Positions 48,365-64,000 of a stretch of 64,000 nt of DNA are shown here, piece by piece. Origin of the DNA: Prosthecomicrobium sp. N25. Its GTDB lineage: Bacteria; Pseudomonadota; Alphaproteobacteria; Rhizobiales; Ancalomicrobiaceae. Location of the stretch: positions 124,001-188,000 of the forward strand of contig NZ_JBBCAT010000004.1 in assembly GCF_037203705.1 (NCBI RefSeq). The letters run 5' to 3'. The translations under genes and the position numbers were made by a program. The notes beneath the pieces are model-generated. The model was given only the letters and a program-made list of their open reading frames with translations. It was not told the DNA's origin and ran no database searches. Numbering within the stretch: the first letter of the stretch is position 1; every line of letters begins with the position of its first letter.

Positions 48365-48491
48365 CGCAAGAGACTCCGGCCGGACCGGCCAGGGCGGTCC
48401 GCGTCCTCCACTTGGCGGCTCCTTGCGCGGAATGCCAGGGGCTGCGGCGGCGATGGATCGTTCGACGATCGGGAACGATGGCCCGCCCGCC

Positions 48492-49853
48492 TCAGGCGCT
48501 CGCGGCGAGACGCTCCATGACGGCGCCGAAGCGGCGGCCGATCCGCTCCCGCTCGCGGTGCCGGCCGTCCTCGACCAGCCGCACGCCGCGGACCCAGACC
48601 TTGTCGACCGCGACCGTGCCGGGCGCGAAGATCCAGGCGTCGAGCAGGGCGTCGCCGTCGGGCAGGTCGGTGCCCGGGCGGGCCGGGGAGAGGGCAACGA
48701 GGTCGGCCGGCGCGCCGGGGGCGATCTCGGACGGCCCGGCGCCGAGCGCCCGGGCGCCGCCGGCGAGCGCGGCGGCGAAGAGGCTGAGGCCGGTCGAGCC
48801 TTCCGGCGGGGCGAGAACGTTGCGCGCCCGGTCGCGCAGGCGCTGGGAGTATTCCAGCATGCGCAGCTCCGCGCCGAGGCCGATCTCGACGTTGGAATCC
48901 GAGCCGATGCCGAAGGCCCCTCCGGCGGCGCGGAAGTCCGCGGCGGGGAAGATGCCGTCGCCGAGGTTGGCCTCGGTCAGGGGGCAGAGGCCGGCGACCG
49001 CGCCGGTCGCCGCGAGGGCGGCGGTTTCGCGCGCGTCCATGTGGGTGGCGTGGACGAGGCACCAGCGTGGGTCGACCGGGGCATGGTCGAGGAGCCAGGC
49101 GACTGGGCGGGCGCCCGACCAGGCGAGGCAATCTTCCACCTCCCGGGTCTGCTCGGCGACGTGGATGTGGACCGGCCCGCCGGCCGCGAGCGCCACGGCG
49201 GCCTCGAGCTCGTCCGGGGTGACCGCCCTCAGCGAATGCGGCGCGACGCCGAGCACACTTCCGGGCAGCGCCGCCAGGGCGCGGCTGGCCGCCTCGTGCA
49301 GGCGGGCGAAACCGGCAGGGTCGTTGACGAAGCGGCGCTGGGCCGTCCCCGCCGGGGCGCCGCCGAAGCCTGCGCGGGCGTAGAGGACGGGGAGCAGGGT
49401 GAGGCCGATGCCGGTCTCGGCCGCCGCCGCGGCGATGCGGACGGCCATCTCGGCCGGATCCTCGTAGGGGTGCCCGTCCGGGGCGTGGTGCAGGTAGTGG
49501 AACTCGCCGACGCGGGTGAAGCCGGCCTCGAGCATCTCGACCTGGAGCTCGGCCGCGACGGCCTCCACGTCGTCGGGCGACATGGCGAGCGCGAAGCGGT
49601 ACATGAGGTCGCGCCAGCTCCAGAAGCTGTCGTTGCCCGGCCCGCGCCGCTCGGTCAGGCCCGCCATCGCACGCTGGAAGGCGTGGCTGTGCAGGTCGGG
49701 CATGCCGGGCAGGAGACAGGCGACGCGCTCGTCCCCGGGGGCCGCGCCGGCGGACGCCTCTACGGCGACGATGCGGCCGTCCGCGAGGGTGAGCCTCACC
49801 TCGGCGGCCCAGCCCTCCGGCAGCAGGGCCCGCCCGGCATGAAGATGCGCCAT
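48492..49853 (-). CDS. hutF: Formimidoylglutamate deiminase
   Basis: A 453-residue metal-dependent amidohydrolase of histidine degradation: N-formimino-L-glutamate to N-formyl-L-glutamate plus ammonia. The metal site HSH (residues 55-57 in MPDLHSHAFQRAMAGL) and the segment NDSFWSWRDLMYRF are highly characteristic of HutF, as is EFHYLHH. The later HIHVAEQ histidines and GSDSNVEI aspartate complete the active site. The other hut genes are outside the window. It is on the same strand as the VOC gene downstream. Confidence 0.93.
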   Translation of the reverse strand: MAHLHAGRALLPEGWAAEVRLTLADGRIVAVEASAGAAPGDERVACLLPGMPDLHSHAFQRAMAGLTERRGPGNDSFWSWRDLMYRFALAMSPDDVEAVAAELQVEMLEAGFTRVGEFHYLHHAPDGHPYEDPAEMAVRIAAAAAETGIGLTLLPVLYARAGFGGAPAGTAQRRFVNDPAGFARLHEAASRALAALPGSVLGVAPHSLRAVTPDELEAAVALAAGGPVHIHVAEQTREVEDCLAWSGARPVAWLLDHAPVDPRWCLVHATHMDARETAALAATGAVAGLCPLTEANLGDGIFPAADFRAAGGAFGIGSDSNVEIGLGAELRMLEYSQRLRDRARNVLAPPEGSTGLSLFAAALAGGARALGAGPSEIAPGAPADLVALSPARPGTDLPDGDALLDAWIFAPGTVAVDKVWVRGVRLVEDGRHRERERIGRRFGAVMERLAASA

Positions 49854-49984
49854 GTCCGCCTCCGTGGTCTGATATGACTATACATATCCAGGCGTCCGGG
49901 GGGAAGCGGCCCTGACGGGTGTCTCGCCGGTGGATGTGGCCGATCCGCCACTGTTCCAGGGCAATGCGCGTATTCCGTCAGGTG

Positions 49985-50104
49985 ATATGAGGAATCTCGC
50001 ATTGATAGAAGGCGCGTGCTTCCCTACGAGGAAGAGGCTGAGCGATCGGCGTTGCATTCCTCCCTTTGACTTGGGCCGCTCCTGACCGGGGCGGTCTTCT
50101 TTTT
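49985..50104 (+). ncRNA. Candidate alphar15/AbcR-type small RNA, copy 1
   Basis: About 120 bases with a stem-loop in the first half (CTTCC...GGAAG). A single-stranded GTTGCATTCCTCCC follows (50051-50064), containing the anti-Shine-Dalgarno CCTCC, and then an intrinsic terminator. Alphaproteobacterial AbcR1/AbcR2 (alphar15) RNAs come as tandem pairs in one intergenic region, carry just such anti-SD motifs and repress ABC-transporter mRNAs. The exact 5-prime end is estimated. No coding potential fits. Confidence 0.6.
50073..50104 (+). terminator. Intrinsic terminator of sRNA copy 1
   Basis: CCGCTCC pairs with GGGGCGG around TGACC, followed by TCTTCTTTTT. It is a good Rho-independent terminator on the plus strand. 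Confidence 0.75.
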
Positions 50105-50177
50105 CGGGCGCGTGTGAAGAGACCCCGATCCCGGGTCGGCCTCGACGTCGGGGTCGAAGGGTCGCGGGCCAGCGTCT

Positions 50178-50297
50178 GGTATGGGTTTCTTCGAATTGTT
50201 GGGTGCGGGCGACTCGCTCTACGGTAGCCATGTCGCCTCGGCGACGGTTGCATTCCTCCCATGACCTCGGACCGCCCGCTCCGCCGGGCGGTTTTTC
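50178..50297 (+). ncRNA. Candidate alphar15/AbcR-type small RNA, copy 2
   Basis: A second unit of about 120 bases. It has a small hairpin (GTCGC CTCG GCGAC) just upstream of the identical 14-mer GTTGCATTCCTCCC at 50247-50260, and then a perfect intrinsic terminator. The shared 14-mer, its position before the terminator, and similar flanking bases (TGAC, CGGACC/GGGCCG) show the two units are paralogues, as for AbcR1 and AbcR2. The rest has diverged. The 5-prime end is estimated. Confidence 0.6.
50272..50296 (+). terminator. Intrinsic terminator of sRNA copy 2
   Basis: CCGCCCG pairs perfectly with CGGGCGG around CTCCGC and is followed by TTTTTC. A strong Rho-independent terminator. Confidence 0.85.
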
Positions 50298-50384
50298 TTT
50301 GCCCGGTCCGCAATCGGACGCCGCGGAACCCCGGCGGGGGCTTGGCGGTTCGTGTCCCGAAAGGCAACCCGAGGGAGACGCCCC

Positions 50385-50777
50385 ATGGACAGACTTGCAC
50401 CCGACGGCTCGGTCGCCGAGGCCCACAGCCCGCGTGCTGACCTTCTCGTCTTCGAAATCCGCGCCCGCATCACCAAGCCCGACATGGAATGGATGGCGCG
50501 GCTGGTCGAGGAGGCGTTCGACCGCCATGAGGCCGTCGACATGCTGGTCGTGATGCGCAACTACCAGGGCGCCGACTGGGGCGCGGTGCTCGACGCCGAA
50601 TTCGCCAAGGCTCAGGCCCGCGCCACGAACCACGTCCGCCGCTACGCCGTCGTCGGCGCCCCCGCCTGGGCGCGCGCGATGATCGAGGTCGCCGACGTCT
50701 TCTCCCCCGTGGACGCCAAGACCTTCGCGCTCGAGGAAGAAGCCGAAGCCTGGGCCTGGGTCAACGGCGCCGCGTGA
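50385..50777 (+). CDS. SpoIIAA/STAS-like protein
   Basis: A 130-residue protein of the SpoIIAA-like (DUF3478, STAS/CRAL-TRIO-like) group: it contains RARITKPDMEWMARLVEEAFDRHEAVDMLVVMRNYQGADWGA and ends with FALEEEAEAWAWV, the usual layout. The biochemical role is unknown; relatives bind small hydrophobic ligands or act as regulators. A GAGGGAG ribosome binding site precedes the ATG at 50385. It is the last chromosomal gene before the attachment site. Confidence 0.83.
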   Translation: MDRLAPDGSVAEAHSPRADLLVFEIRARITKPDMEWMARLVEEAFDRHEAVDMLVVMRNYQGADWGAVLDAEFAKAQARATNHVRRYAVVGAPAWARAMIEVADVFSPVDAKTFALEEEAEAWAWVNGAA

Positions 50778-50824
50778 CACCCGCCCGCCGCGCGGCCCCG
50801 AGGCCCTGCCGGGCCGGGGGCCCG

Positions 50825-50869
<45 letters not shown>

Positions 50870-50990
50870 TCGGATAATACAACCGTACGTTGAGCGAGCA
50901 GGTACTTGCGCGACACGATGAGCGACCGATGCGGATTTGCGAGGATCCGATCTCGGTGCTCAGGACGGTGCTCGCCAAGGAATTTGTCGA

Positions 50991-52184
50991 ATGGCTTCCC
51001 TCAATCTCACGGAGTCCCGCATCCGGGAACTCCCCCTCGGCTCCGGCATCTGGCGCGACCAACAGGTCAAGGGGCTGCTGGTCATCTGCCATGCAACCAC
51101 GAAGACCTACTCGGTGCAAGGCGACGTCCGCAGGAACGGCCGGCACGTCCGCACCGTGCGGGTCAAGATCGACCGCGTGGACCGGATCGGCCTGCGCGAG
51201 GCCCGCAATAAGGCCCGCGAGCTGATGTCGCAGATCCAGTCCGGCATCGACCCCACGGCGAAGCAGGAGGCGAGCACCATCACGGTCGCCGAAGCCCTGG
51301 AGGTCCACCTCGGCGAGCGCACTTTCCGCAAGGCGACCGTGGACAGCTACCGCTACAACGTCGACCACTACCTCGCCCGCATCAGGAATCGACCGATCGT
51401 CGACCTGAGCCGGCCCATGGTGCGGGACATCTACGAGAAGCTCCGCACCAACTCCGGGCAGACGACCGCGACCGGCGTGATGCGCGTCCTTCGCGCGATC
51501 ATCAACACCGCCATGCGGATGGACATCACCATCACCGACAACCCGGTCTGCGCCCTTCGCCTGCCCATGCCGCCGGACCGGAGGGTCGACGCGCTCGACC
51601 TCATGGAATGGTGGGAGCTGACGGAGGAGCTTCCGCCGATCCGGCGCGACCTCCACCGCGCCATGATGCTCACGGGCGCCCGGCGGTCGTCGATCCTCAA
51701 CCTGAAGCGCGCCGACGTGGACCTCGGCCGCAGGATCCTGCGCTTCACCCACATGAAGACGGGCGGGCAGATGCTGTTCCCCATGGGCGACTTCCTCACC
51801 GCCATGGTCGAGGAGCGGATGCGCGCCGACCTGCCGCTCAACAATCCCTGGCTCTGGCCGTCGCCCGTGAGCGGCATCGGCTGCACCACCGAGCCGAAGG
51901 AGAAGCGGCGCGGCCTGCCGAGCCCGCACGAGTACCGCCACCACGCCCGCACGCTCTTCATCGCGGCCGGCGTGCCCTACGCCGAGAGCGCGCTCCTCCT
52001 CGGCCAGCGGCTTCCCGGTGCCTCCGGCGGATACGTCCACGCCGAGCACCTCGTCGAGCACTTGCGCCCGCACGCGCAGGCGCTGGAGACGAAGATCCTG
52101 GCGGCGCGGGTCGGCGGCCTGATCCTGCCGCCCGCCGACGACCTCTCGGACGAGGAGGACGGCGACGATGCCGAGGCCGCTTAA
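50991..52184 (+). CDS. int: Tyrosine recombinase (site-specific integrase)
   Basis: A 397-residue phage-type integrase with an N-terminal arm-binding domain (residues 1-90, with RVDRIGLREARNKARELM), a core-binding domain (about 95-190) and the catalytic domain. Catalytic residues: Arg231/232 (LTGARRSSILNL), Lys256 (THMKTGG), His313 and Arg316 (HEYRHHARTLF), and Tyr348 (GASGGYVHAE). At the usual LLGH position the sequence is LLGQR (Gln339). AAGGAA precedes the ATG at 50991. It sits next to the tRNA-derived attachment site it presumably uses. Confidence 0.93.
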   Translation: MASLNLTESRIRELPLGSGIWRDQQVKGLLVICHATTKTYSVQGDVRRNGRHVRTVRVKIDRVDRIGLREARNKARELMSQIQSGIDPTAKQEASTITVAEALEVHLGERTFRKATVDSYRYNVDHYLARIRNRPIVDLSRPMVRDIYEKLRTNSGQTTATGVMRVLRAIINTAMRMDITITDNPVCALRLPMPPDRRVDALDLMEWWELTEELPPIRRDLHRAMMLTGARRSSILNLKRADVDLGRRILRFTHMKTGGQMLFPMGDFLTAMVEERMRADLPLNNPWLWPSPVSGIGCTTEPKEKRRGLPSPHEYRHHARTLFIAAGVPYAESALLLGQRLPGASGGYVHAEHLVEHLRPHAQALETKILAARVGGLILPPADDLSDEEDGDDAEAA

Positions 52185-52590
52185 GTCGAGCGCATCGAGG
52201 CCGAAGCCCCACTCGCCGGTCCCGCTCCAGTCGCCGCGTCCGGCCAAGAAGAAGGGGCCGGTCACGGTGGAGGACGTCGAGCTGCTGGTGCGCTGGCTCA
52301 TCGAGACGCACCGCTACACGCCCTGGTTCGACACGGAGGCGGCGGCCGCCTACCTCCGCCGCGAGCCGGGGACGCTGAAGGGCTGGCGCTCCAAGGGGGA
52401 GGGCCCGCGCTTCTACCTCGTGAACGAGCAGTTCATCCGCTACCACATCGACGACCTCGACGCCTTCGTGCGGGGCAGCCGCCGACGCATTCCGAAGTGG
52501 CTGCTGGACAAGGCGGCGGCGCAGGCGGCGGCCGGATGCCTCCCCGAGCCGTCCCCGTCGCCCCGGCTCAGGGGCGACGAGAAACGTTGA
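52168..52590 (+). CDS. Excisionase-like HTH protein 1
   Basis: A 140-residue protein. A MerR/excisionase-like winged HTH occupies about residues 50-100: WFDTEAAAAYLRREPGTLKGWRSKGEGPRFYLV, then RYHIDDLDAFV. The N-terminal 30 residues are Lys/Pro-rich, and the last 40 are Ala/Pro-rich. The start has GAGGAGG upstream and overlaps the integrase stop by 17 bases, so the two are translationally coupled. It probably controls excision (directionality factor) or transcription. A homologous gene follows. Confidence 0.8.
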   Translation: MPRPLKSSASRPKPHSPVPLQSPRPAKKKGPVTVEDVELLVRWLIETHRYTPWFDTEAAAAYLRREPGTLKGWRSKGEGPRFYLVNEQFIRYHIDDLDAFVRGSRRRIPKWLLDKAAAQAAAGCLPEPSPSPRLRGDEKR

Positions 52591-52747
52591 TGTCGCTCTC
52601 CGCGGCAGCGTGATGATTAGACGACGCGCGCCTCGAGGAGCCGGAATTCCGGCGGGCGCGCGGTCGGTTCACCCGGCCCTCCTCAGACAGAAACCCTGGT
52701 CTGAACCGGCCCGCGGCGAAGCCGCCGGCCGCATGGAGGTCGATACG

Positions 52748-52978
52748 ATGAACGATGCGCCGAAGCACGACGCGCGGGGCGACACCGCCGCCCGCGCCGT
52801 CACGAGCCCCTGGCTCGACACCGAGGCGGCCGCCGCCTACCTCTCCTGCTCGCCCGGAACGCTCCGCTCCTGGCGGGCGCGGGGGCAGGGACCGCGCTAC
52901 CGCGTGATCCACGACAAGATCGTCCGCTACCACCGCGACGACCTCGACGGCTTCGTGCTCGGGGAGGGCGGCCGATGA
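52748..52978 (+). CDS. Excisionase-like HTH protein 2
   Basis: A 76-residue protein consisting mainly of the same HTH: WLDTEAAAAYLSCSPGTLRSWRARGQGPRYRV, then RYHRDDLDGFV. It is clearly a paralogue of the preceding gene. GGAGG is eight bases upstream of the ATG at 52748, so this start is preferred to the ATG at 52733. It overlaps the primase start by four bases (ATGA), consistent with one early operon int-HTH1-HTH2-primase. Confidence 0.8.
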   Translation: MNDAPKHDARGDTAARAVTSPWLDTEAAAAYLSCSPGTLRSWRARGQGPRYRVIHDKIVRYHRDDLDGFVLGEGGR

Positions 52979-55470: not shown

Positions 55471-56032
55471 AGACCACACGAGCCTGGCGCGTCCGACCTG
55501 AGGTCGGTCGGCATCACGTCAGACCAGCTCACAGCGTGGCCGACGGTGGCGCTCGCCTCGCAGACCCTGCGGCTCTCGCGCGTGAGGCCCAGGCAGTCAG
55601 CCGGGCGGAGGCAGAGGCCAAGGGCCAGGACCGGGCCGCCGGGGCGCTCGACGGCGGCGCGGCGACGGCGGGCATGGGCGGCGGGCGCCTAAGACCTGGA
55701 CGACGGCGCCGGCGTGGGACCGAACTCGTGACCCACTGATTTCGTGTCAGAGGGTCGAGGGAGAGAAGGCGAGCCGGCGCAAGGGCATGCCTGGGGCGAG
55801 CCGCCCAAACACCGGCCCGAGCACCGGCAAGGGGTCCGGGGCAAAACAACCCACTTCCATTCGCCGAGGCGGCGGCGTCCTGGGGCGTCCGCAGGCCCTA
55901 CGGCCTCCCCTGGATGGAACAGGTCCGTGGGGCTGAACTCCAAAATTTGTGCGAGGTCGTTTCGATGGCTCCCCGCACGTCCCGCACGCCACATCGTCGC
56001 AAGCACGCAATCAAGAGGCGGGGCTGCAGGCC
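55471..56032. other. Gene-free spacer in the element
   Basis: About 560 bases without a convincing gene. At 55716-55755 the minus strand shows a tRNA-like piece (anticodon-arm-like CTGACACGAAATCAG and a degenerate T-arm GAGTTCGGTC), which may be a decayed tRNA fragment. Otherwise I see only low-complexity GC-rich sequence and a run of Ala/Gly-rich codons in one frame that may be the rest of a deleted phage gene. Confidence 0.4.
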
Positions 56033-56539
56033 ATGACCGACAGGACGAACGAGAAGCGGGCGGTGCGCCGCCCCGCCATGGACCGGCGCTGGTCGCCGGC
56101 CATAGAGGCGCGAGTCTTGGACATCGTCGCGAGGACCGGTTCGCCGAAGATGGCGTCCGAGGCCGTGGGCGTCTCGGTCGCGACCATCCACGACCACCGC
56201 AGGCGCGACACCGACTTCGGCGCGAGGTACGGCGCCGCGATGGACACCGCCTTCCATCAGGTGCTGTCGAAGGCATTCGAGCGGTCCATGGCCGACGAGG
56301 AGCCTTCGGACCGGCTGATCGAGGTTCTGCTCAAGTTTCGGTGGCCCGAACGGCTCAACGGCTTCCTCGCCTTCACCGCCGAGGGCGGCTCGGCGGCGAC
56401 GGCGCCCGCCGGTCTCGACCCGCGTGTCATCGCAAGGATGGAGCCGGCCGACAGGGCGGCCCTGATCGAGCTCCTGGGCCGATACTTGGTCGCAGAGACG
56501 GAGGCGAAGGGCGATGCCGCGCTCCTCCTCATCAACTGA
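56033..56539 (+). CDS. Phage HTH protein, possibly small terminase subunit
   Basis: A 168-residue protein with an HTH near the N-terminus: ARVLDIVARTGSPKMASEAVGVSVATIHDHRRRDTDFG. This recalls the homeodomain-like N-terminus of small terminase subunits, followed by helical segments with RFRWPERL-type residues and an acidic tail. Small terminases recognise the pac/cos site during DNA packaging. No large terminase is found after it. Confidence in the family is moderate because only the HTH is distinctive. Confidence 0.5.
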   Translation: MTDRTNEKRAVRRPAMDRRWSPAIEARVLDIVARTGSPKMASEAVGVSVATIHDHRRRDTDFGARYGAAMDTAFHQVLSKAFERSMADEEPSDRLIEVLLKFRWPERLNGFLAFTAEGGSAATAPAGLDPRVIARMEPADRAALIELLGRYLVAETEAKGDAALLLIN

Positions 56540-58831: not shown

Positions 58832-59173
58832 ATGGCCGCCATCACCGACGACATCCTGCGGGAGCTCCTGGCCGGCGTCCTCGCGACGACGCCGTCCGAG
58901 CTCTGGCTGATGCTGCACGGCGCCAGGGTCGCCTGCGTCGGCGCGCGGCAGAAGGCCTGCGAGCAGGCGCTCGCCCGGCTCGGCTACCGCAAGGTGCCGG
59001 TCCATCCGCTCCGTCTCAGCCGCGACGGCTTCGAGTGGCAGCGCGACCCCTGGCCGTCCGACGACCGCTGGCCGGACCTCTCCGACGACCCGGTCCTGCT
59101 GGAGATCGTCGAGCGCTACATCGTCTGGCGCATCGCCAGCAGCGCCGGGGAGGCTGGCCATGGCCGGACTTGA
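58832..59173 (+). CDS. Element protein upstream of the tail protein
   Basis: A 113-residue protein starting two bases after the previous gene and overlapping the next one by 14 bases. It has a central RLGYRKVPVHPLRLSRDG and a Trp/Asp-rich part (WPSDDRWPDLSDDP). No family is recognised. Genes just before gp10-like proteins in phages are usually head-tail connectors, but similarity is not visible. Confidence 0.5.
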   Translation: MAAITDDILRELLAGVLATTPSELWLMLHGARVACVGARQKACEQALARLGYRKVPVHPLRLSRDGFEWQRDPWPSDDRWPDLSDDPVLLEIVERYIVWRIASSAGEAGHGRT

Positions 59174-59600
59174 CGAGCTCGCAAAGCGGCTCGACCGCAT
59201 CGCGGTCGAGGTCGAGGGCAACGTCGAGCGGGCGGTCAAGGACTGCGCCGGGGCCGTCCTTCGCTCCGTGGTCGATGCGACGCCAGTCGACACCGGCTAT
59301 GCCCGCTCGAATTGGACGCCCGAGCTCGATCGGGCGTTCGAGGGGCTGTTCCCCGCGAGGGTACCGGGTAAGGCGGGCTCGACGGCGGAGGCGACCGCCG
59401 CCGCGACCGTGGAGGCCGGATTGCCGACCATCGAGGCATTCGACTTGAGCCGGAACGCCGAGATCCACATCACGAACAACGCGCCGCACATCGGCGCGCT
59501 CAACGACGGTCACTCGCGCCAGGCGCCGGCCGACTTCGTCCGGCTCGCGGTGCTCGACGGCCTCGCGGCCGTCCGCGGCGCACGGGTGCTGCCGGACTGA
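59160..59600 (+). CDS. HK97-gp10-like tail/neck protein
   Basis: A 146-residue protein with features of the HK97 gp10 (tail completion) family: an N-terminal helix (LAKRLDRIAVEVEGNVERAVK), the signature VDATPVDTGYARSNW with the Pro-Val-Asp-Thr-Gly turn, and the later ITNNAPHIGALNDGHSRQAPADFV. In phages this protein links head and tail. It is the clearest phage-structural gene in the element, yet no capsid or portal gene accompanies it. Confidence 0.75.
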   Translation: MAGLDELAKRLDRIAVEVEGNVERAVKDCAGAVLRSVVDATPVDTGYARSNWTPELDRAFEGLFPARVPGKAGSTAEATAAATVEAGLPTIEAFDLSRNAEIHITNNAPHIGALNDGHSRQAPADFVRLAVLDGLAAVRGARVLPD

Positions 59601-59834: not shown

Positions 59835-59985
59835 CGGCGGTCTCCTTCGGGTCCGATCTCCCTCCATCGTGTCGCGGTCCGGAGCCGCCGCGAGCCCCCT
59901 CAATCCGAAGAATTCTCCGCTCGCGGACCCCTCGGATCGCGGCACGCTGGTCTCCATCGGCATCCCGCCGAAGGAGGACCGGGCC

Positions 59986-60426
59986 ATGGCCCATGCGAAG
60001 GAGCTGCCGCTCGTCAGGCGGCGCGTCGAGGCGCTTCTGTCGAAGACGGTGGCGAACGGCTGCACCGCCGGCGAGGCCGCCGCCGCGCTCGAGAAGGCGG
60101 AGGAGCTCGTCGCCAAGTACGAGCTCGATCCGGGCCAGTTCCGGTGGCCGCCGAGGCCTTCGACGATCTTCGGCTCGGCGACGTCAGGCCCGAGCGCCTC
60201 GAGGCCGCCACGGGCCGCCGGATCGGGCCGGGGCCGGGGCATCGGGGCCATGGCCGAGGCGCTGATCGCCGAGCATCCGGACTGGACGTACACGGCGGTC
60301 GCGGCAGAGGTGAACCGGCGGATCGAGGGGGCGCGGGCAAGTGAGAAGTCGGTGCGGTGGTACGCCAGCCGGATGCGGCGGCGCGGGGATGCTGTGCCGC
60401 GCAGGCGGAGGCGCATCACCGACTGA
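59986..60426 (+). CDS. DUF2786-like protein
   Basis: A 146-residue protein. The N-terminal segment (RRRVEALLSKTVANGCTAGEAAAALEKAEELVAKYELD) resembles the DUF2786 helical pair found in phage and plasmid proteins. A basic Arg-rich C-terminal part follows (ARASEKSVRWYASRMRRRG), possibly DNA-binding. AAGGAGG precedes the ATG at 59986. It converges with the XRE repressor gene. Confidence 0.6.
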   Translation: MAHAKELPLVRRRVEALLSKTVANGCTAGEAAAALEKAEELVAKYELDPGQFRWPPRPSTIFGSATSGPSASRPPRAAGSGRGRGIGAMAEALIAEHPDWTYTAVAAEVNRRIEGARASEKSVRWYASRMRRRGDAVPRRRRRITD

Positions 60427-60642
60427 TCAATCCCTAGGGGTGAGCAGCGCCGCGGGCGTGGTCTTCAGGGCCTCGGCGAGCCGGGCGAGCAGGTCGACCG
60501 ACGGGTTCCGCTTCCCCCGCTCTATGCCGGAGATGTAGGTCCGGTCGATCTTCGCCTCGTCGGCGAGCGCCTCCTGCGACAGGTCGAGGAGGTCCCTCGC
60601 CGCCTTCACGTTCTCCGCTAGGATTCGCCGATAGTCCGCCAT
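60427..60642 (-). CDS. XRE-type repressor
   Basis: A 71-residue single-domain HTH_XRE protein: NVKAARDLLDLSQEALADEAKIDRTYISGIERGKRNPSVDLLARLAEALKTTPAALL covers the classic five-helix lambda-repressor-like fold. The ATG at 60642 gives a normal N-terminus; an alternative GTG at 60678 would add 12 residues. It is divergent from the membrane protein gene, and a 20-bp palindrome in between is its probable operator. It lacks the C-terminal domain of lambda CI, so it cannot self-cleave. Confidence 0.88.
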   Translation of the reverse strand: MADYRRILAENVKAARDLLDLSQEALADEAKIDRTYISGIERGKRNPSVDLLARLAEALKTTPAALLTPRD

Positions 60643-60661
60643 GCCGGTATGGGACGAAGCT

Positions 60662-60736
60662 GTGGACTGAGCGTCCACGGACTCATCGTCACAAAGTTCG
60701 GCTGCGCGATTCGGTTCTGTCGACTATAGTCGACAG
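60662..60736. promoter_or_regulatory. Operator region for the XRE repressor
   Basis: CTGTCGACTATAGTCGACAG at 60717-60736 is a perfect 20-bp palindrome ending two bases before the ATG of the divergent gene, so a bound repressor would block it. The centre CTATAG doubles as a TATAGT -10-like hexamer on both strands. A second inverted repeat, GTGGAC-N5-GTCCAC, lies at 60662-60678 near the repressor start. The two repeats differ in sequence. Confidence 0.65.
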
Positions 60737-60738
60737 CC

Positions 60739-61068
60739 ATGGAGACCTTCCACGCCGCCGTCCTCTGGCTCTACAAGGCCCTGGCCACCTGGTACGTGGC
60801 CGGGATCGTCGGCGGCCTGCTGATCCTGGCGATGGAGCGGTGGGACCGCCGTAAGGAGCCGACCGACGAGGACGTCCGTCGCGCCGCCCGAGAGTACCTC
60901 CGCTACTACGGCCGCGAGGCCCAGCGGGTCGTCGGCGACCACATGCTCGGAGCCTCCTTCGCGCCAGACGGCCGGCACCGGCAGTTCCTCAAGCGGGTCG
61001 CCGCCGAGCTGCTGGCGACGGCCGTCACCGAAGAGGACCGCGCACGACTGCCCTTAGAAAAAAGGTAG
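60739..61068 (+). CDS. Small single-pass membrane protein under repressor control
   Basis: A 109-residue protein with one N-terminal hydrophobic segment (about residues 6-30, AVLWLYKALATWYVAGIVGGLLILAM) and a charged cytoplasmic part with many Arg/Glu/Asp residues. It starts two bases after the 20-bp palindrome, leaving almost no 5-prime leader, so the mRNA may be leaderless. It is the last gene before the defence operon, with a 195-base gap. The function is unknown; in mobile elements such genes are sometimes toxins or holin-like. Confidence 0.6.
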   Translation: METFHAAVLWLYKALATWYVAGIVGGLLILAMERWDRRKEPTDEDVRRAAREYLRYYGREAQRVVGDHMLGASFAPDGRHRQFLKRVAAELLATAVTEEDRARLPLEKR

Positions 61069-61263
61069 CCTCTTCGTCGCCCGAGCGAAAACTCGGCATT
61101 ATGCAGTTCGACCGATGCGCATAGGCAGAGCGCGTGACCCGTCCAATTCCAGTGACGGCACAGGTAACATGATCAGCCTTTACCGCAGGTAGATTTGTGC
61201 TTAAGATGCAGCTTAAGCGATAAGCGACTGAAGTCGTACGATACCATGTGGGAGGGCTAACGC

Positions 61264-63576
61264 ATGCACGTCCATTCCGTAGCCTTCAAGAATTTTCGGC
61301 GCTTGAAAGATGCACGGATAGACTTTTCAGAAGAATTGACAATCTTTGTCGGCGCAAACAATAGTGGAAAGACGTCCGCCACACATGCGATAGAACTTTT
61401 CCTCTCCGGCTCCAAAGAGAAGTTCACGATCCACGATTTTTGTGCGGATTGCTGGACGGCGTTTGAGAAGATGCCATCCGACAGCGCAGACGCAGCGGAT
61501 TTCCGACTTCCGCACATTTCGCTAGACGTTTGGATCGCCGTCGATGCCGACAACTTGTATCGCGTCGTAGAGCTTCTTCCGCGTGCGGCTTGGGAAGGGT
61601 CACTCGTCGGCCTGAGGATTGAATTCGCTGCTAAAGATGCTGCCCAGACACTTGCCAGATATAGAGGCAAGGCCGCCGATGCCTCGAAGTTCGCTCAGAC
61701 GAAGGCGAAAGATGGACAGGACTATAGCCCATGGCCGCGCAACATGCGGGATTACCTGTCACGGGAACTAAAAAACGAATATGTGCTTCGCTACTTCATT
61801 CTGGACGAAGCGGAACTCAATCCGGGGGCGACCGGAGTGGTGCATATGCCAAAGGAGATTGTTGGCGATACCGAGCGATCGGGGCACTCGATCATCAACT
61901 CGCTCATCAAGGTTGATTTCCTTAGCGCACAGCGCCATTTGAGCGACGGTAATGCACAGTCGCGGACCGAAGATCTATCTCGGCGGCTAAGTCGCTTCTA
62001 CACTCGCAAGCAGAAGAAGCGTGACGATGATCATAACGCATTAAGGGCTCTTGCTCTATCCGAGGATCAACTTACCAAGCACTTCTCAGACGTTTTCAGT
62101 GATACCTTCAGATCGCTCCGGAAGCTCGGGTATCCGGGACTTGCTAACCCCTCACTAGAAATTCGCGCAGCACTTAAAATTGAAAGGCTGATGGGAGACC
62201 ACCAGACGAAGGTTCACTACCTTCTAGAGGAAGCGACCGCCGAAGCCGAAGCACTGATGCTTCCCGACAACTACAACGGATTGGGTTTCAAAAACCTGAT
62301 TTACATGGGCGTCGAACTGCTCGATCTCCATTCGGCCTGGGCCACGACCGAAGAAGGCGAGGAAGATAAGCGCCAGCCAATCCATTTGGTTTTTATTGAG
62401 GAGCCGGAGGCCCACATGCATGCCCAGCTCCAGCAAGCATTCGTGCGCAAACTTACAGACTTGATCCCGCCGCGAGGCAAGGACGGGTACTCGACGCAAT
62501 TCGTTATCACAACCCATTCGGCCCATATTTTATACGAGCGAGGATTCAGGCCGATACGTTACTTCCGAAGATCAAGCGAGACGGGCTCAAGGCAAAATTC
62601 GAATATATTCAATCTCTCTGTATTCTATGACCGGAATGAGCCTGACCGCGACTTTCTAGAGCGTTATATGAAGCTCACGCACTGTGACATGTTTTTTGCG
62701 GATGCAGCAATTCTGGTTGAGGGGAACGTTGAAAGGCTGGTACTCCCGCTTATGATTGCACAAAGCGCGAAGAAACTTGGCGCCGCGTACCTAAGTATCC
62801 TGGAAGTCGGTGGCGCTTTTGCCTTCCGCTTCCGTCGGCTGATTGAGTTCTTGGGCCTACCCACGTTGATCATCACGGACTTAGATAGCGTTTATCCAGT
62901 GCCGTCGAAGTTGGAGGGCGAGGACGCAGTCAAGGCTGCCGATGCTGCGGAGTCGAGCGACGATGAAGATGAGGAGGACGAACCCGACGCAAAACAAGAA
63001 GCAGATGGCAGTCCCAAACCGAGACCTCGTTCAAAGTGCCCGGCTACAACACCGGGTGCAGTGACCGCGAACCAAACGCTGCGACAATGGCTCCCCGGAA
63101 AGACGTCTGTCGAAGACCTGCTTGCGGCTGAAATAGAGGAGCGAGTCCAGGCCCCGACGAAGGACGGTGGAGCTCATGTCATGGTGACTTACCAATGCCC
63201 TGTCAAGGCAACTTGGGGAACTACCACCCTCGAGCTCAAGAGCCGCACCCTTGAAGAAGCTTTCGCATATGAAAACCTATCGTGGTGCCAGAAAATGGAG
63301 AATCAAAGCGTTGGATTACGTTGGAAAAAATCAGGAACAATGACTCTAGGCGTCCTTGCCGCGAAAATTCATGCGCGGGTGAAGGGCGAAAGCTTCAACA
63401 AAACGAATTTTGCCCTCGGCCTCTTAGCCAGCACAGACGCAAGTTGGGTGGTTCCAGCCTACATTCGGTCAGGGCTAGATTGGCTAGCAACGCATTTGGC
63501 TATCGCCGAAGGCACGCTGGATTCACCAGTTTCAACAGCTGTTTCCGCGCCCAAAGCGGTGGAGGTAGCTCAATGA
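61264..63576 (+). CDS. gajA: GajA-like OLD-family ATPase/nuclease (Gabija)
   Basis: A 770-residue class 2 OLD protein. The ABC-type ATPase half has Walker A GANNSGKT (residues 30-37), FIEEPEAH (acidic 379-382) and the H-loop THSAHIL (His418). A TOPRIM nuclease domain follows with LVEGNVE (Glu486/490), ILEVGG and ITDLDS (Asp539/541). The partner UvrD-type gene overlaps by four bases, the Gabija arrangement. It is about 190 residues longer than the best-known GajA, with an acidic loop (S564-D575) after the TOPRIM. Codons are AT-richer than the host's. An S-D site (GGGAGGG) precedes the ATG. Confidence 0.82.
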   Translation: MHVHSVAFKNFRRLKDARIDFSEELTIFVGANNSGKTSATHAIELFLSGSKEKFTIHDFCADCWTAFEKMPSDSADAADFRLPHISLDVWIAVDADNLYRVVELLPRAAWEGSLVGLRIEFAAKDAAQTLARYRGKAADASKFAQTKAKDGQDYSPWPRNMRDYLSRELKNEYVLRYFILDEAELNPGATGVVHMPKEIVGDTERSGHSIINSLIKVDFLSAQRHLSDGNAQSRTEDLSRRLSRFYTRKQKKRDDDHNALRALALSEDQLTKHFSDVFSDTFRSLRKLGYPGLANPSLEIRAALKIERLMGDHQTKVHYLLEEATAEAEALMLPDNYNGLGFKNLIYMGVELLDLHSAWATTEEGEEDKRQPIHLVFIEEPEAHMHAQLQQAFVRKLTDLIPPRGKDGYSTQFVITTHSAHILYERGFRPIRYFRRSSETGSRQNSNIFNLSVFYDRNEPDRDFLERYMKLTHCDMFFADAAILVEGNVERLVLPLMIAQSAKKLGAAYLSILEVGGAFAFRFRRLIEFLGLPTLIITDLDSVYPVPSKLEGEDAVKAADAAESSDDEDEEDEPDAKQEADGSPKPRPRSKCPATTPGAVTANQTLRQWLPGKTSVEDLLAAEIEERVQAPTKDGGAHVMVTYQCPVKATWGTTTLELKSRTLEEAFAYENLSWCQKMENQSVGLRWKKSGTMTLGVLAAKIHARVKGESFNKTNFALGLLASTDASWVVPAYIRSGLDWLATHLAIAEGTLDSPVSTAVSAPKAVEVAQ

Positions 63577-64000
63577 CAAGCCGCGTAGGCAAGCCGGATA
63601 CGCCAGCCGATGTCCAACTTCGAGCACTCCTCGATGCCGGTGCATCTACAGGCTTCGTGATGGTCGCGGGCGCAGGCTCGGGAAAGACGACGTCCATTGT
63701 CAAGGCGCTCGACCATCTACGAGTTACGCGTGGTTCCCTTCTCCGCCAGCGCTCACAAAAAATAGCATGTATAACGTACACCGAACTCGCGGTTGCCGAG
63801 ATTTGGGGGGATGTCGGCAACGACCCGTTATTCCACGTTTCAACCATCCATAGCTTTCTGTGGACCGCCTTGAAGCCGTTCCAGGCGGACATCGCGCTTT
63901 GGGTGGACAGACGCTTGGATCAGAAGATCGAAGACACGGAACAGAAGATTGCCGCATTCACTACTCGAACGCAAGCGAAGACGAGGATCCAAGCGGCAGG
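63573..64000 (+). CDS. gajB: GajB-like UvrD/Rep-type helicase, N-terminal part
   Basis: The frame begins with ATGA overlapping the gajA stop and is open to the window edge (142 codons). The start shows superfamily 1 helicase motifs: motif I GAGSGKTT (33-40), motif Ia CITYTELAVAEI and motif Ic VSTIHSFLW. In Gabija, GajB is the UvrD/PcrA-like subunit that works with the GajA nuclease to sense phage replication. The C-terminal helicase motifs (II-VI) are outside the window. Confidence 0.82.
   Translation, partial: MTSRVGKPDTPADVQLRALLDAGASTGFVMVAGAGSGKTTSIVKALDHLRVTRGSLLRQRSQKIACITYTELAVAEIWGDVGNDPLFHVSTIHSFLWTALKPFQADIALWVDRRLDQKIEDTEQKIAAFTTRTQAKTRIQAA

What the first reader, a model, noticed from the sequence alone, without database searches (positions are those of the whole stretch)
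61264..64000. Gabija-type anti-phage defence pair as cargo of a tRNA-Thr island
The order OLD-nuclease then UvrD-type helicase with an ATGA overlap, the Walker A/H-loop and TOPRIM motifs in the first gene and motifs I/Ia/Ic in the second are the Gabija arrangement. They sit at the end of an integrated element with a lower-GC composition than the host.
Basis: partly seen in the sequence, partly recalled or inferred. Interest (0 to 1): 0.75.

Follow-up and report, generated by a model that had tools for sequence, protein, structure and literature searches.

The report
Gabija defence genes on tRNA island
A bacterial mobile element sitting in a threonine tRNA gene carries a two-gene anti-virus system of the known Gabija type; the defence pair is ordinary, but the element looks unusual because it leaves the host tRNA gene in two pieces and brings a complete replacement copy.

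Summary
GajA-like gene: window 61264-63576 (770 aa). GajB-like gene: starts at 63573 in an ATGA overlap and runs past the window to 65474 (633 aa) with UvrD motifs I-VI. Both match PADLOC Gabija models end to end (913.5 and 797.8 bits; PARIS AriA 189.7, Old 89.6). In 78 of 80 relatives the helicase lies directly downstream; in the other two the GajA gene is short or broken. Similarity to the well-studied B. cereus Gabija is weak, so this is a long-protein branch whose activity is inferred, not tested. The island is real: 14,987 bp between two cores in the anticodon loop of tRNA-Thr(UGU). Two corrections: only the Gabija cargo is low in GC (0.53), the backbone (0.70) is like the host; and the island does not rebuild the host tRNA gene but leaves both halves and carries its own complete tRNA-Thr, the only one a pattern search found in the genome. 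A sister element has the same tRNA arrangement and a related backbone, with an Eco29kI-type restriction-modification system in the cargo position. New member of a known kind; modest interest, mostly for the element.

The parts
61264..63576 (+). gajA: OLD-family ATPase/TOPRIM nuclease, 770 aa
63573..64000 (+). gajB: UvrD/Rep-like SF1A helicase, 633 aa; runs past the window end to window coordinate 65474 (read from G000:C4, L002:14573-16474). Beyond it, also outside the window: complete tRNA-Thr(UGU) at 65675-65749 (-) and the 5' half of the host tRNA-Thr at 65850-65886 (-), whose core 65850-65856 is the right end of the element
   Evidence: gajB; tRNA parts:
62890..63036 (+). acidic insertion (residues 543-591), mostly of low model confidence, in the GajA TOPRIM domain just after the catalytic DxD
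61069..61263 (.). intergenic stretch upstream of gajA where GC drops from 0.70 to 0.54: left edge of the cargo
50825..50869 (-). 3' half of the host tRNA-Thr; left end of the element (core TTACAAA 50863-50869)
50937..52184 (+). tyrosine-recombinase integrase next to the left end
   Evidence: PF00589, PF13356
52168..52978 (+). two small HTH_17 proteins (52168-52590, 52610-52978), possible excisionase or regulators
   Evidence: PF12728
52975..55248 (+). primase-helicase (Prim-Pol, PriCT-2, DUF5906)
55949..56539 (+). small terminase-like protein (weak: 39.6 bits)
   Evidence: phrog_4044
59160..59600 (+). HK97-gp10-like / Neck1 connector protein
   Evidence: PF04883, just above its cutoff; phrog_169, 107 bits; below the NCBIfam cutoff
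59869..60426 (+). DUF2786 protein; end of the stretch shared with the sister element
60427..60678 (-). HTH repressor-like protein

Best explanation
A Gabija system (class 2 OLD nuclease GajA plus UvrD-like helicase GajB) of a long-protein branch, carried as exchangeable defence cargo by a 15-kb integrative, phage-derived element in tRNA-Thr(UGU). Shown here: the genes, their motifs, the family match, operon coupling in relatives, the element's ends, and one sister element with other defence genes in the same position. Inferred from published work on B. cereus and P. aeruginosa Gabija: GajA and GajB form one complex in which the helicase ATPase and the GajA TOPRIM site together cut or block incoming phage DNA. 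I think it most likely (about 55%) that the trigger is phage DNA ends free of RecBCD/AddAB-type repair enzymes, with nucleotide depletion as the main alternative; this step is not shown for this branch.
For: End-to-end PADLOC GajA and GajB matches. TOPRIM residues E486, G516, D539 and D541 align with GajA E379, G409, D432 and D434 (profile alignment; residue roles from passages of PMC10781630); E486, D539 and D541 are kept in 78 of 78 aligned sequences and G516 in 76 of 78. GajB residues checked in motifs I, Ia, II, III, IV and VI are kept in 67 of 67; in motif V K530 and G531 in 67, G528 in 65, E533 in 50. Helicase directly downstream on the same strand in 78 of 80 relatives. GajA and GajB distances correlate, r = 0.93 over 67 loci, maximum of 1000 permutations 0.13. 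In 77 IMG/VR loci a GajB-profile ORF lies next to the GajA homologue in 19 of 20 (300 bits or more), 12 of 14 (100-300) and 33 of 43 (under 100). The four best Foldseek matches of the GajA model are solved GajA chains. Sister element with restriction-modification cargo.
Against: Single-sequence similarity to the experimentally studied B. cereus proteins is weak (GajA 28 bits, GajB 24 bits) and the proteins are longer (770 and 633 aa against chains of 578 and 494). By profile, Thermus class 1 OLD (68.9 bits) scores slightly above GajA (63.7). The Foldseek superpositions on GajA are poor as a whole (query TM 0.33-0.34, rmsd 13.6-15.1 for the top four), and by VIA-align the GajA model ties with SMC heads (18.7) and the retron Eco8 effector (17.4) at Z 18.2. 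The helicase model, made from the 75.5% identical L052 protein, resembles UvrD (Z 25.1) more than GajB (Z 16.6). No activity was tested. The left flank of the island is not next to tRNA-Thr in G001, G002 or G007.
Confidence: 0.88

Rival explanations
1. The OLD protein belongs to another OLD system (PARIS AriA, retron Eco8/PtuA effector, or a stand-alone class 1 OLD) and the helicase neighbour is incidental.
For: AriA, Old, PtuA and Eco8 models do match above noise; the Eco8 effector aligns from end to end of the model with a tied Z; Thermus class 1 OLD is the best PDB profile hit by a small margin.
Against: GajA models lead by more than 700 bits; PtuA and Eco8 scores are far below their cutoffs; the helicase is coupled in 78 of 80 relatives; ATPase and TOPRIM are in one protein, unlike PARIS; apart from the pair no ORF of 150 aa or more lies between 60427 and the tRNA, so there is no room for a reverse transcriptase.
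Confidence: 0.03
2. The pair is a chromosomal DNA-repair module (OLD-like nuclease plus Rep/UvrD helicase), not a defence system.
For: The helicase model fits UvrD well; an archaeal OLD class apparently without a defence role exists (PMC12796447, abstract start and passages).
Against: Patchy distribution: 8 of 385 sampled genomes of the class and 13 of 398 of the phylum at E <= 1e-60, own genome included; 100 plasmid records carry relatives, 66 of them predicted conjugative; island cargo of foreign GC; the sister element has another defence system in the same position.
Confidence: 0.06
3. A Gabija-type pair that no longer works in this host (decaying passenger).
For: Some relatives look broken: L058 (helicase ORF of 102 aa), L129 (GajA ORF of 297 aa), L125 (GajA ORF of 482 aa).
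Against: Both genes here are open over their full length with all catalytic residues checked.
Confidence: 0.1

Closest known systems
Gabija of Bacillus cereus VD045 (GajA 8sm3_A/8jq9, GajB 8sm3_B)
   Same: Fused ABC ATPase-TOPRIM nuclease followed by an SF1A helicase; same TOPRIM catalytic residues and DESQD box; GajA fold aligned from model residue 1 to 744 with chain residues 1 to 575 (Z 18.2, 428 residues, rmsd 5.9, 8x5i_C).
   Different: Longer proteins (770 and 633 aa); only 28 and 24 bits by phmmer; acidic insertion after the DxD; helicase model closer to UvrD than to the 494-aa GajB.
Gabija of Pseudomonas aeruginosa PA14 on island PAPI-1 (preprint PMC12407980; abstract, section 5 and passages read)
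   Same: A gajA-gajB operon carried by a mobile island.
   Different: A 115-gene conjugative element; I did not compare the sequences.
Defence hotspots of P4-like satellites and P2-like phages (PMC9122126, passages)
   Same: A small slot beside conserved element genes that holds different defence systems in different copies.
   Different: I did not compare the backbones; the exchange seen here rests on two elements; a satellite lifestyle is not shown.
tRNA-targeting genomic islands of the Islander type (PMC4383910, passages)
   Same: Tyrosine integrase, crossover in the anticodon loop, direct repeat made of tRNA sequence.
   Different: Those restore the target gene and leave one fragment; here the target is left as two halves and a complete tRNA-Thr lies about 100 bp inside the right end, in two elements.

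Membership tests
Gabija (class 2 OLD + UvrD-like helicase) | GajA: N-terminal ABC ATPase fused to OLD-type TOPRIM domain | tested here: met
   PF13175 161.2 bits over 1-422, PF20469 64.8 bits over 477-541
Gabija (class 2 OLD + UvrD-like helicase) | Best and full-length match to GajA and GajB models rather than to other defence families | tested here: met
   PDLC00095 913.5 bits, PDLC00143 797.8 bits; best non-Gabija AriA 189.7 and RTasHel 70.0
Gabija (class 2 OLD + UvrD-like helicase) | Complete TOPRIM active site (E, G, DxD) | tested here: met
   E486, G516, D539, D541 align to GajA E379, G409, D432, D434 (roles from PMC10781630 passages); conserved in 78, 76, 78, 78 of 78
Gabija (class 2 OLD + UvrD-like helicase) | GajB with Walker A, DExQD box and the other SF1A motifs | tested here: met
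   Motifs I-VI found in P0001, conserved in 67 relatives, E533 of motif V in 50 of them
Gabija (class 2 OLD + UvrD-like helicase) | gajA directly upstream of gajB, inherited together | tested here: met
   78 of 80 relatives; distance correlation 0.93 over 67 loci
Gabija (class 2 OLD + UvrD-like helicase) | Fold specific to GajA/GajB as opposed to other OLD or UvrD proteins | tested here: inconclusive
   GajA chains lead Foldseek, with low TM, but VIA Z is tied with SMC heads and Eco8; GajB 8sm3_B Z 16.6 against UvrD 25.1
Gabija (class 2 OLD + UvrD-like helicase) | 4:4 GajA-GajB complex and phage protection needing both genes | not testable with these tools
   needs biochemistry and plaque assays
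PARIS (OLD class 4) | ATPase (AriA) and TOPRIM nuclease (AriB) as separate proteins | tested here: not met
   Both domains are in one 770-aa protein; the partner is a helicase
Retron OLD effectors (Eco8, PtuA) | Score above the family cutoff | tested here: not met
   PtuA 66 of 500 needed, Eco8 37.7 of 250 needed
tRNA-targeted integrative element | Tyrosine integrase and flanking direct repeats inside a tRNA gene | tested here: met
   PF00589; TTTGTAA cores 14,987 bp apart; joined halves 74 of 75 identical to tRNA-Thr of G001 and G002
tRNA-targeted integrative element | Target tRNA rebuilt with one displaced fragment (Islander rule) | tested here: not met
   Two halves plus a separate complete tRNA-Thr, also in the sister element
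Phage satellite | Replication/packaging genes without a full set of virion genes | tested here: inconclusive
   Primase, small terminase-like and gp10-like hits; no capsid, portal, large terminase or tail-fibre hit among the 13 ORFs between 50937 and 61068 scanned in one or more; not every ORF was scanned, and mobilisation was not tested

The most novel reading that the evidence does not exclude
The host element belongs to a family that breaks the cell's only tRNA-Thr(UGU) gene at the anticodon loop without rebuilding it and pays for this with a complete tRNA-Thr gene of its own. Loss of the element by anything but exact excision would then remove an essential tRNA, so the replacement tRNA would act as a retention device for whatever defence system sits beside it (Gabija here, restriction-modification in the sister). 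The anatomy is shown in two elements; the retention role is inferred.
Probability: 0.35. Interest if true: 0.6.

Novelty: new member of a known kind. Interest (0 to 1): 0.33.

Why it matters
Gabija is common and Gabija on mobile islands is known, so the pair itself adds one more case, though of a long-protein branch for which the PDB searches here found only distant solved relatives. More useful is the element: two copies with related backbones and different defence cargo suggest that the slot beside the tRNA is exchanged, and the whole-tRNA replacement offers a simple way to keep such an element, and its defence genes, in a lineage.

Tried and rejected
PARIS, retron and class 1 OLD identities were tested and rejected on scores, domain fusion and partner gene. 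Structure comparison was meant to settle GajA against other OLD proteins but did not: Z values are tied. The single-protein scan of genome contigs found no relative (probably its peptide patterns were too specific); the alignment query worked. The viral-contig scan with the primase found no relative. The primase search over 297 genomes of the order found only the own genome, and the integrase search over 385 genomes of the class found two further genomes at 60 and 63% identity; in the stretches taken around them no tRNA-Thr was found and they were not pursued. Synteny of the left flank was tested and not confirmed: the matching stretch lies elsewhere in G001, G002 and G007, so the empty site rests on the joined tRNA halves and on the right flank, which does lie next to tRNA-Thr in relatives.

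A regulatory role for the acidic insertion was considered: 67 of 78 sequences have an insertion of 20 or more residues and 62 of 78 a net acidic excess of 5 or more; its median excess of 10 is the highest of 12 segments compared. But the C-terminal tail is acidic too (median excess 6), and Thermus class 1 OLD has a charged stretch at the same place, so I do not build on it. Tandem-tRNA or two-island histories for the tRNA pieces were considered; I see no simple one that leaves a 5' half outside a complete gene in two separate elements, while each of the 15 loci of relatives scanned for tRNAs (loci of 2.5-4.2 kb) has a single tRNA-Thr. Low GC is only a weak sign of transfer for this family: in 74 relatives with enough flank the pair was lower in GC than its flanks in 48, by a median of 0.03 over all 74; here the gap is about 0.17 to the backbone.

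Rows dropped: of the 80 relatives, L111, L125 and L129 are not in alignment A3 (77 relatives plus the window protein), and L051, L058, L074, L079, L101, L102, L106, L108, L111, L117, L125, L128 and L129 are not in A4 (67). In the IMG/VR test a partner had to be a GajB-profile ORF at E <= 1e-5 on the same strand within -300 to +400 bases; the three misses at 100 bits or more end at a contig edge, the ten misses below 100 bits were not examined.

Full report
What is there. The window is G000:C4:124001-188000. The first gene, 61264-63576, encodes 770 residues; the second starts at 63573 in an ATGA overlap and, read from the assembly beyond the window, ends at 65474 with 633 residues. Pfam finds AAA_15, OLD-like_TOPRIM and UvrD-helicase. 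The helicase has motifs I, Ia, Ib/c, II, III, IV, V and VI (motif names recalled).

Family. PADLOC gives GajA PDLC00095 913.5 bits over residues 1-751 and GajB PDLC00143 797.8 bits over 1-625; PARIS AriA has 189.7, Old 89.6. NCBIfam retron effectors score far below their cutoffs. The TOPRIM residues that passages of PMC10781630 name as the GajA active site (E379, G409, D432, D434) align with E486, G516, D539 and D541 and are kept in 78, 76, 78 and 78 of 78 aligned sequences.

Coupling. Of 80 relatives from titled genome records (the best of 468 found), 78 have the helicase downstream on the same strand, with the ORF starts from 326 bases before to 3 bases after the end of gajA; 47 of the 78 have the same 4-base overlap when the first start codon is taken. 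The exceptions are L125 (GajA ORF of 482 aa, contig ending 189 bases later) and L129 (GajA ORF of 297 aa); in L058 the helicase ORF is only 102 aa. Pairwise distances of the two proteins correlate with r = 0.93 over 67 loci against at most 0.13 in 1000 permutations; common descent of whole operons is enough to explain this. In 77 IMG/VR loci the helicase sits next to the GajA homologue in 19 of 20, 12 of 14 and 33 of 43 loci by falling score.

Distance from studied Gabija. phmmer gives only 28 bits to B. cereus GajA and 24 to GajB. The AlphaFold2 model of GajA (mean pLDDT 79.2) has solved GajA chains as its four best Foldseek matches, with low TM-scores (0.33-0.34 of the query); VIA-align gives Z 18.2 over 428 residues to 8x5i_C, but SMC heads (up to 18.7, ATPase part only) and retron Eco8 (17.4) are tied. 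The helicase was modelled from L052 (75.5% identical; pLDDT 92.4) and resembles UvrD (Z 25.1) more than GajB (16.6). Passages of PMC10681800 report that B. cereus GajB lacks UvrD elements and did not unwind DNA; whether the longer helicase does is open.

Distribution. Relatives at E <= 1e-60 occur in 8 of 385 sampled genomes of the class and 13 of 398 of the phylum, the own genome included in both, in 100 of 72,556 plasmid records at E <= 1e-30 and 2 of 50,697 phage records at E <= 1e-10. The titles of the 80 relatives name genera of Proteobacteria, Bacteroidota and Actinomycetota (phyla from recall). This is the spread one expects of a mobile defence system.

The island. The left end holds a 3' half of tRNA-Thr and the right end, beyond the window, a 5' half; the cores TTACAAA lie at 50863 and 65850, 14,987 bp apart. 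Joined, the halves give a 75-base tRNA-Thr identical at 74 positions to the one of G001 and of G002. The core is the anticodon loop, TTTGTAA, between the arms CGGT and ACCG; the element's own sides read CCGA and TCGG. The sister's own sides show no such pair of arms. Between the halves, 100 bp from the right core, lies a complete tRNA-Thr(UGU) with 69 of 75 positions equal to the host gene. A pattern for tRNA-Thr(UGU) finds only this gene and the left fragment in the genome; a deviating gene could escape it.

Backbone and cargo. From the left: integrase, two HTH proteins, primase, small terminase-like, gp10-like, DUF2786, a repressor-like HTH. The backbone has GC 0.698, gajA 0.529, gajB 0.523; third positions are 0.92-0.94 in integrase and primase against 0.55-0.57 in the pair. 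I infer that the pair came to the element separately, from a lower-GC source.

Sister element. An IMG/VR record carries an integrase 87% identical; five DNA pieces at 75-82% identity cover 5,866 of the 9,613 bases between window 50799 and 60411. It too has a complete tRNA-Thr inside, 100 bp from the core, and a tRNA half at either end. In the cargo position it has Vsr, a C5 methyltransferase and an Eco29kI-type restriction enzyme. Two elements are few, but they show one position with two defence systems.

Mechanism. Shown: genes, motifs, coupling, element ends, different cargo in the sister. Inferred: that GajA and GajB act together on phage DNA, as reported for other Gabija systems. The abstract of the preprint PMC12407980 proposes that Gabija acts on linear DNA devoid of RecBCD; the abstract of PMC8136825, seen only in a listing, describes a sequence-specific nicking nuclease, and its title a nucleotide-sensing one. 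I favour the first because the helicase here keeps its motifs, but this is a preference, not a result.

Prior art. PMC4383910 (passages) and PMC8371274 (section 18 read) state that integration into tRNA genes restores an intact copy of the target; the arrangement here departs from that. Searches showed, by titles, abstract starts and the passages read, no paper on whole-tRNA replacement by such an element, but these were three searches of open-access text; tycheposons, which by my recollection carry tRNA genes, may be related. Defence slots in satellites (PMC9122126, passages) and Gabija on an island (PMC12407980, section 5) are known. One search for Gabija subtypes found no described long branch under the terms used.

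Noticed in passing
window 50825-50869, and beyond the window at 65675-65886: The element leaves both halves of the host tRNA-Thr(UGU) gene apart and carries a complete replacement tRNA-Thr, the only complete one found in the genome by pattern.
   Followed up: yes
L213:963-16353 (IMG/VR 2751185632_000005): Sister element with a related backbone and the same tRNA arrangement; cargo is Vsr, C5 methyltransferase and an Eco29kI-type restriction enzyme, plus a 221-aa ORF with an HATPase domain.
   Followed up: yes
window 62890-63036: Acidic, mostly low-confidence insertion right after the TOPRIM DxD, kept in charge but not in sequence in most long GajA relatives (62 of 78 with a net excess of 5 or more).
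   Followed up: partly
window 60739-61068: 109-aa ORF between the backbone and the cargo without a match in NCBIfam, PADLOC or Pfam; it lies outside the stretch shared with the sister element.
   Followed up: partly
window 48400-50826: The left flank of the island lies elsewhere in two genomes of the same genus and one of the same family, so there has been a rearrangement at this end in one lineage or another.
   Followed up: partly
L058, L125, L129, L035: Broken or shortened copies of the pair in relatives: helicase ORF of 102 aa, GajA ORFs of 482 and 297 aa, and a GajA match lacking the first 76 residues.
   Followed up: no
phage records MT835554.1 and OR790969.1: Distant GajA relatives (27.6-29.3% identity) in a faecal phage record and in Pseudomonas phage PfAC02b, the latter annotated with an endonuclease and a helicase under the match.
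   Followed up: no
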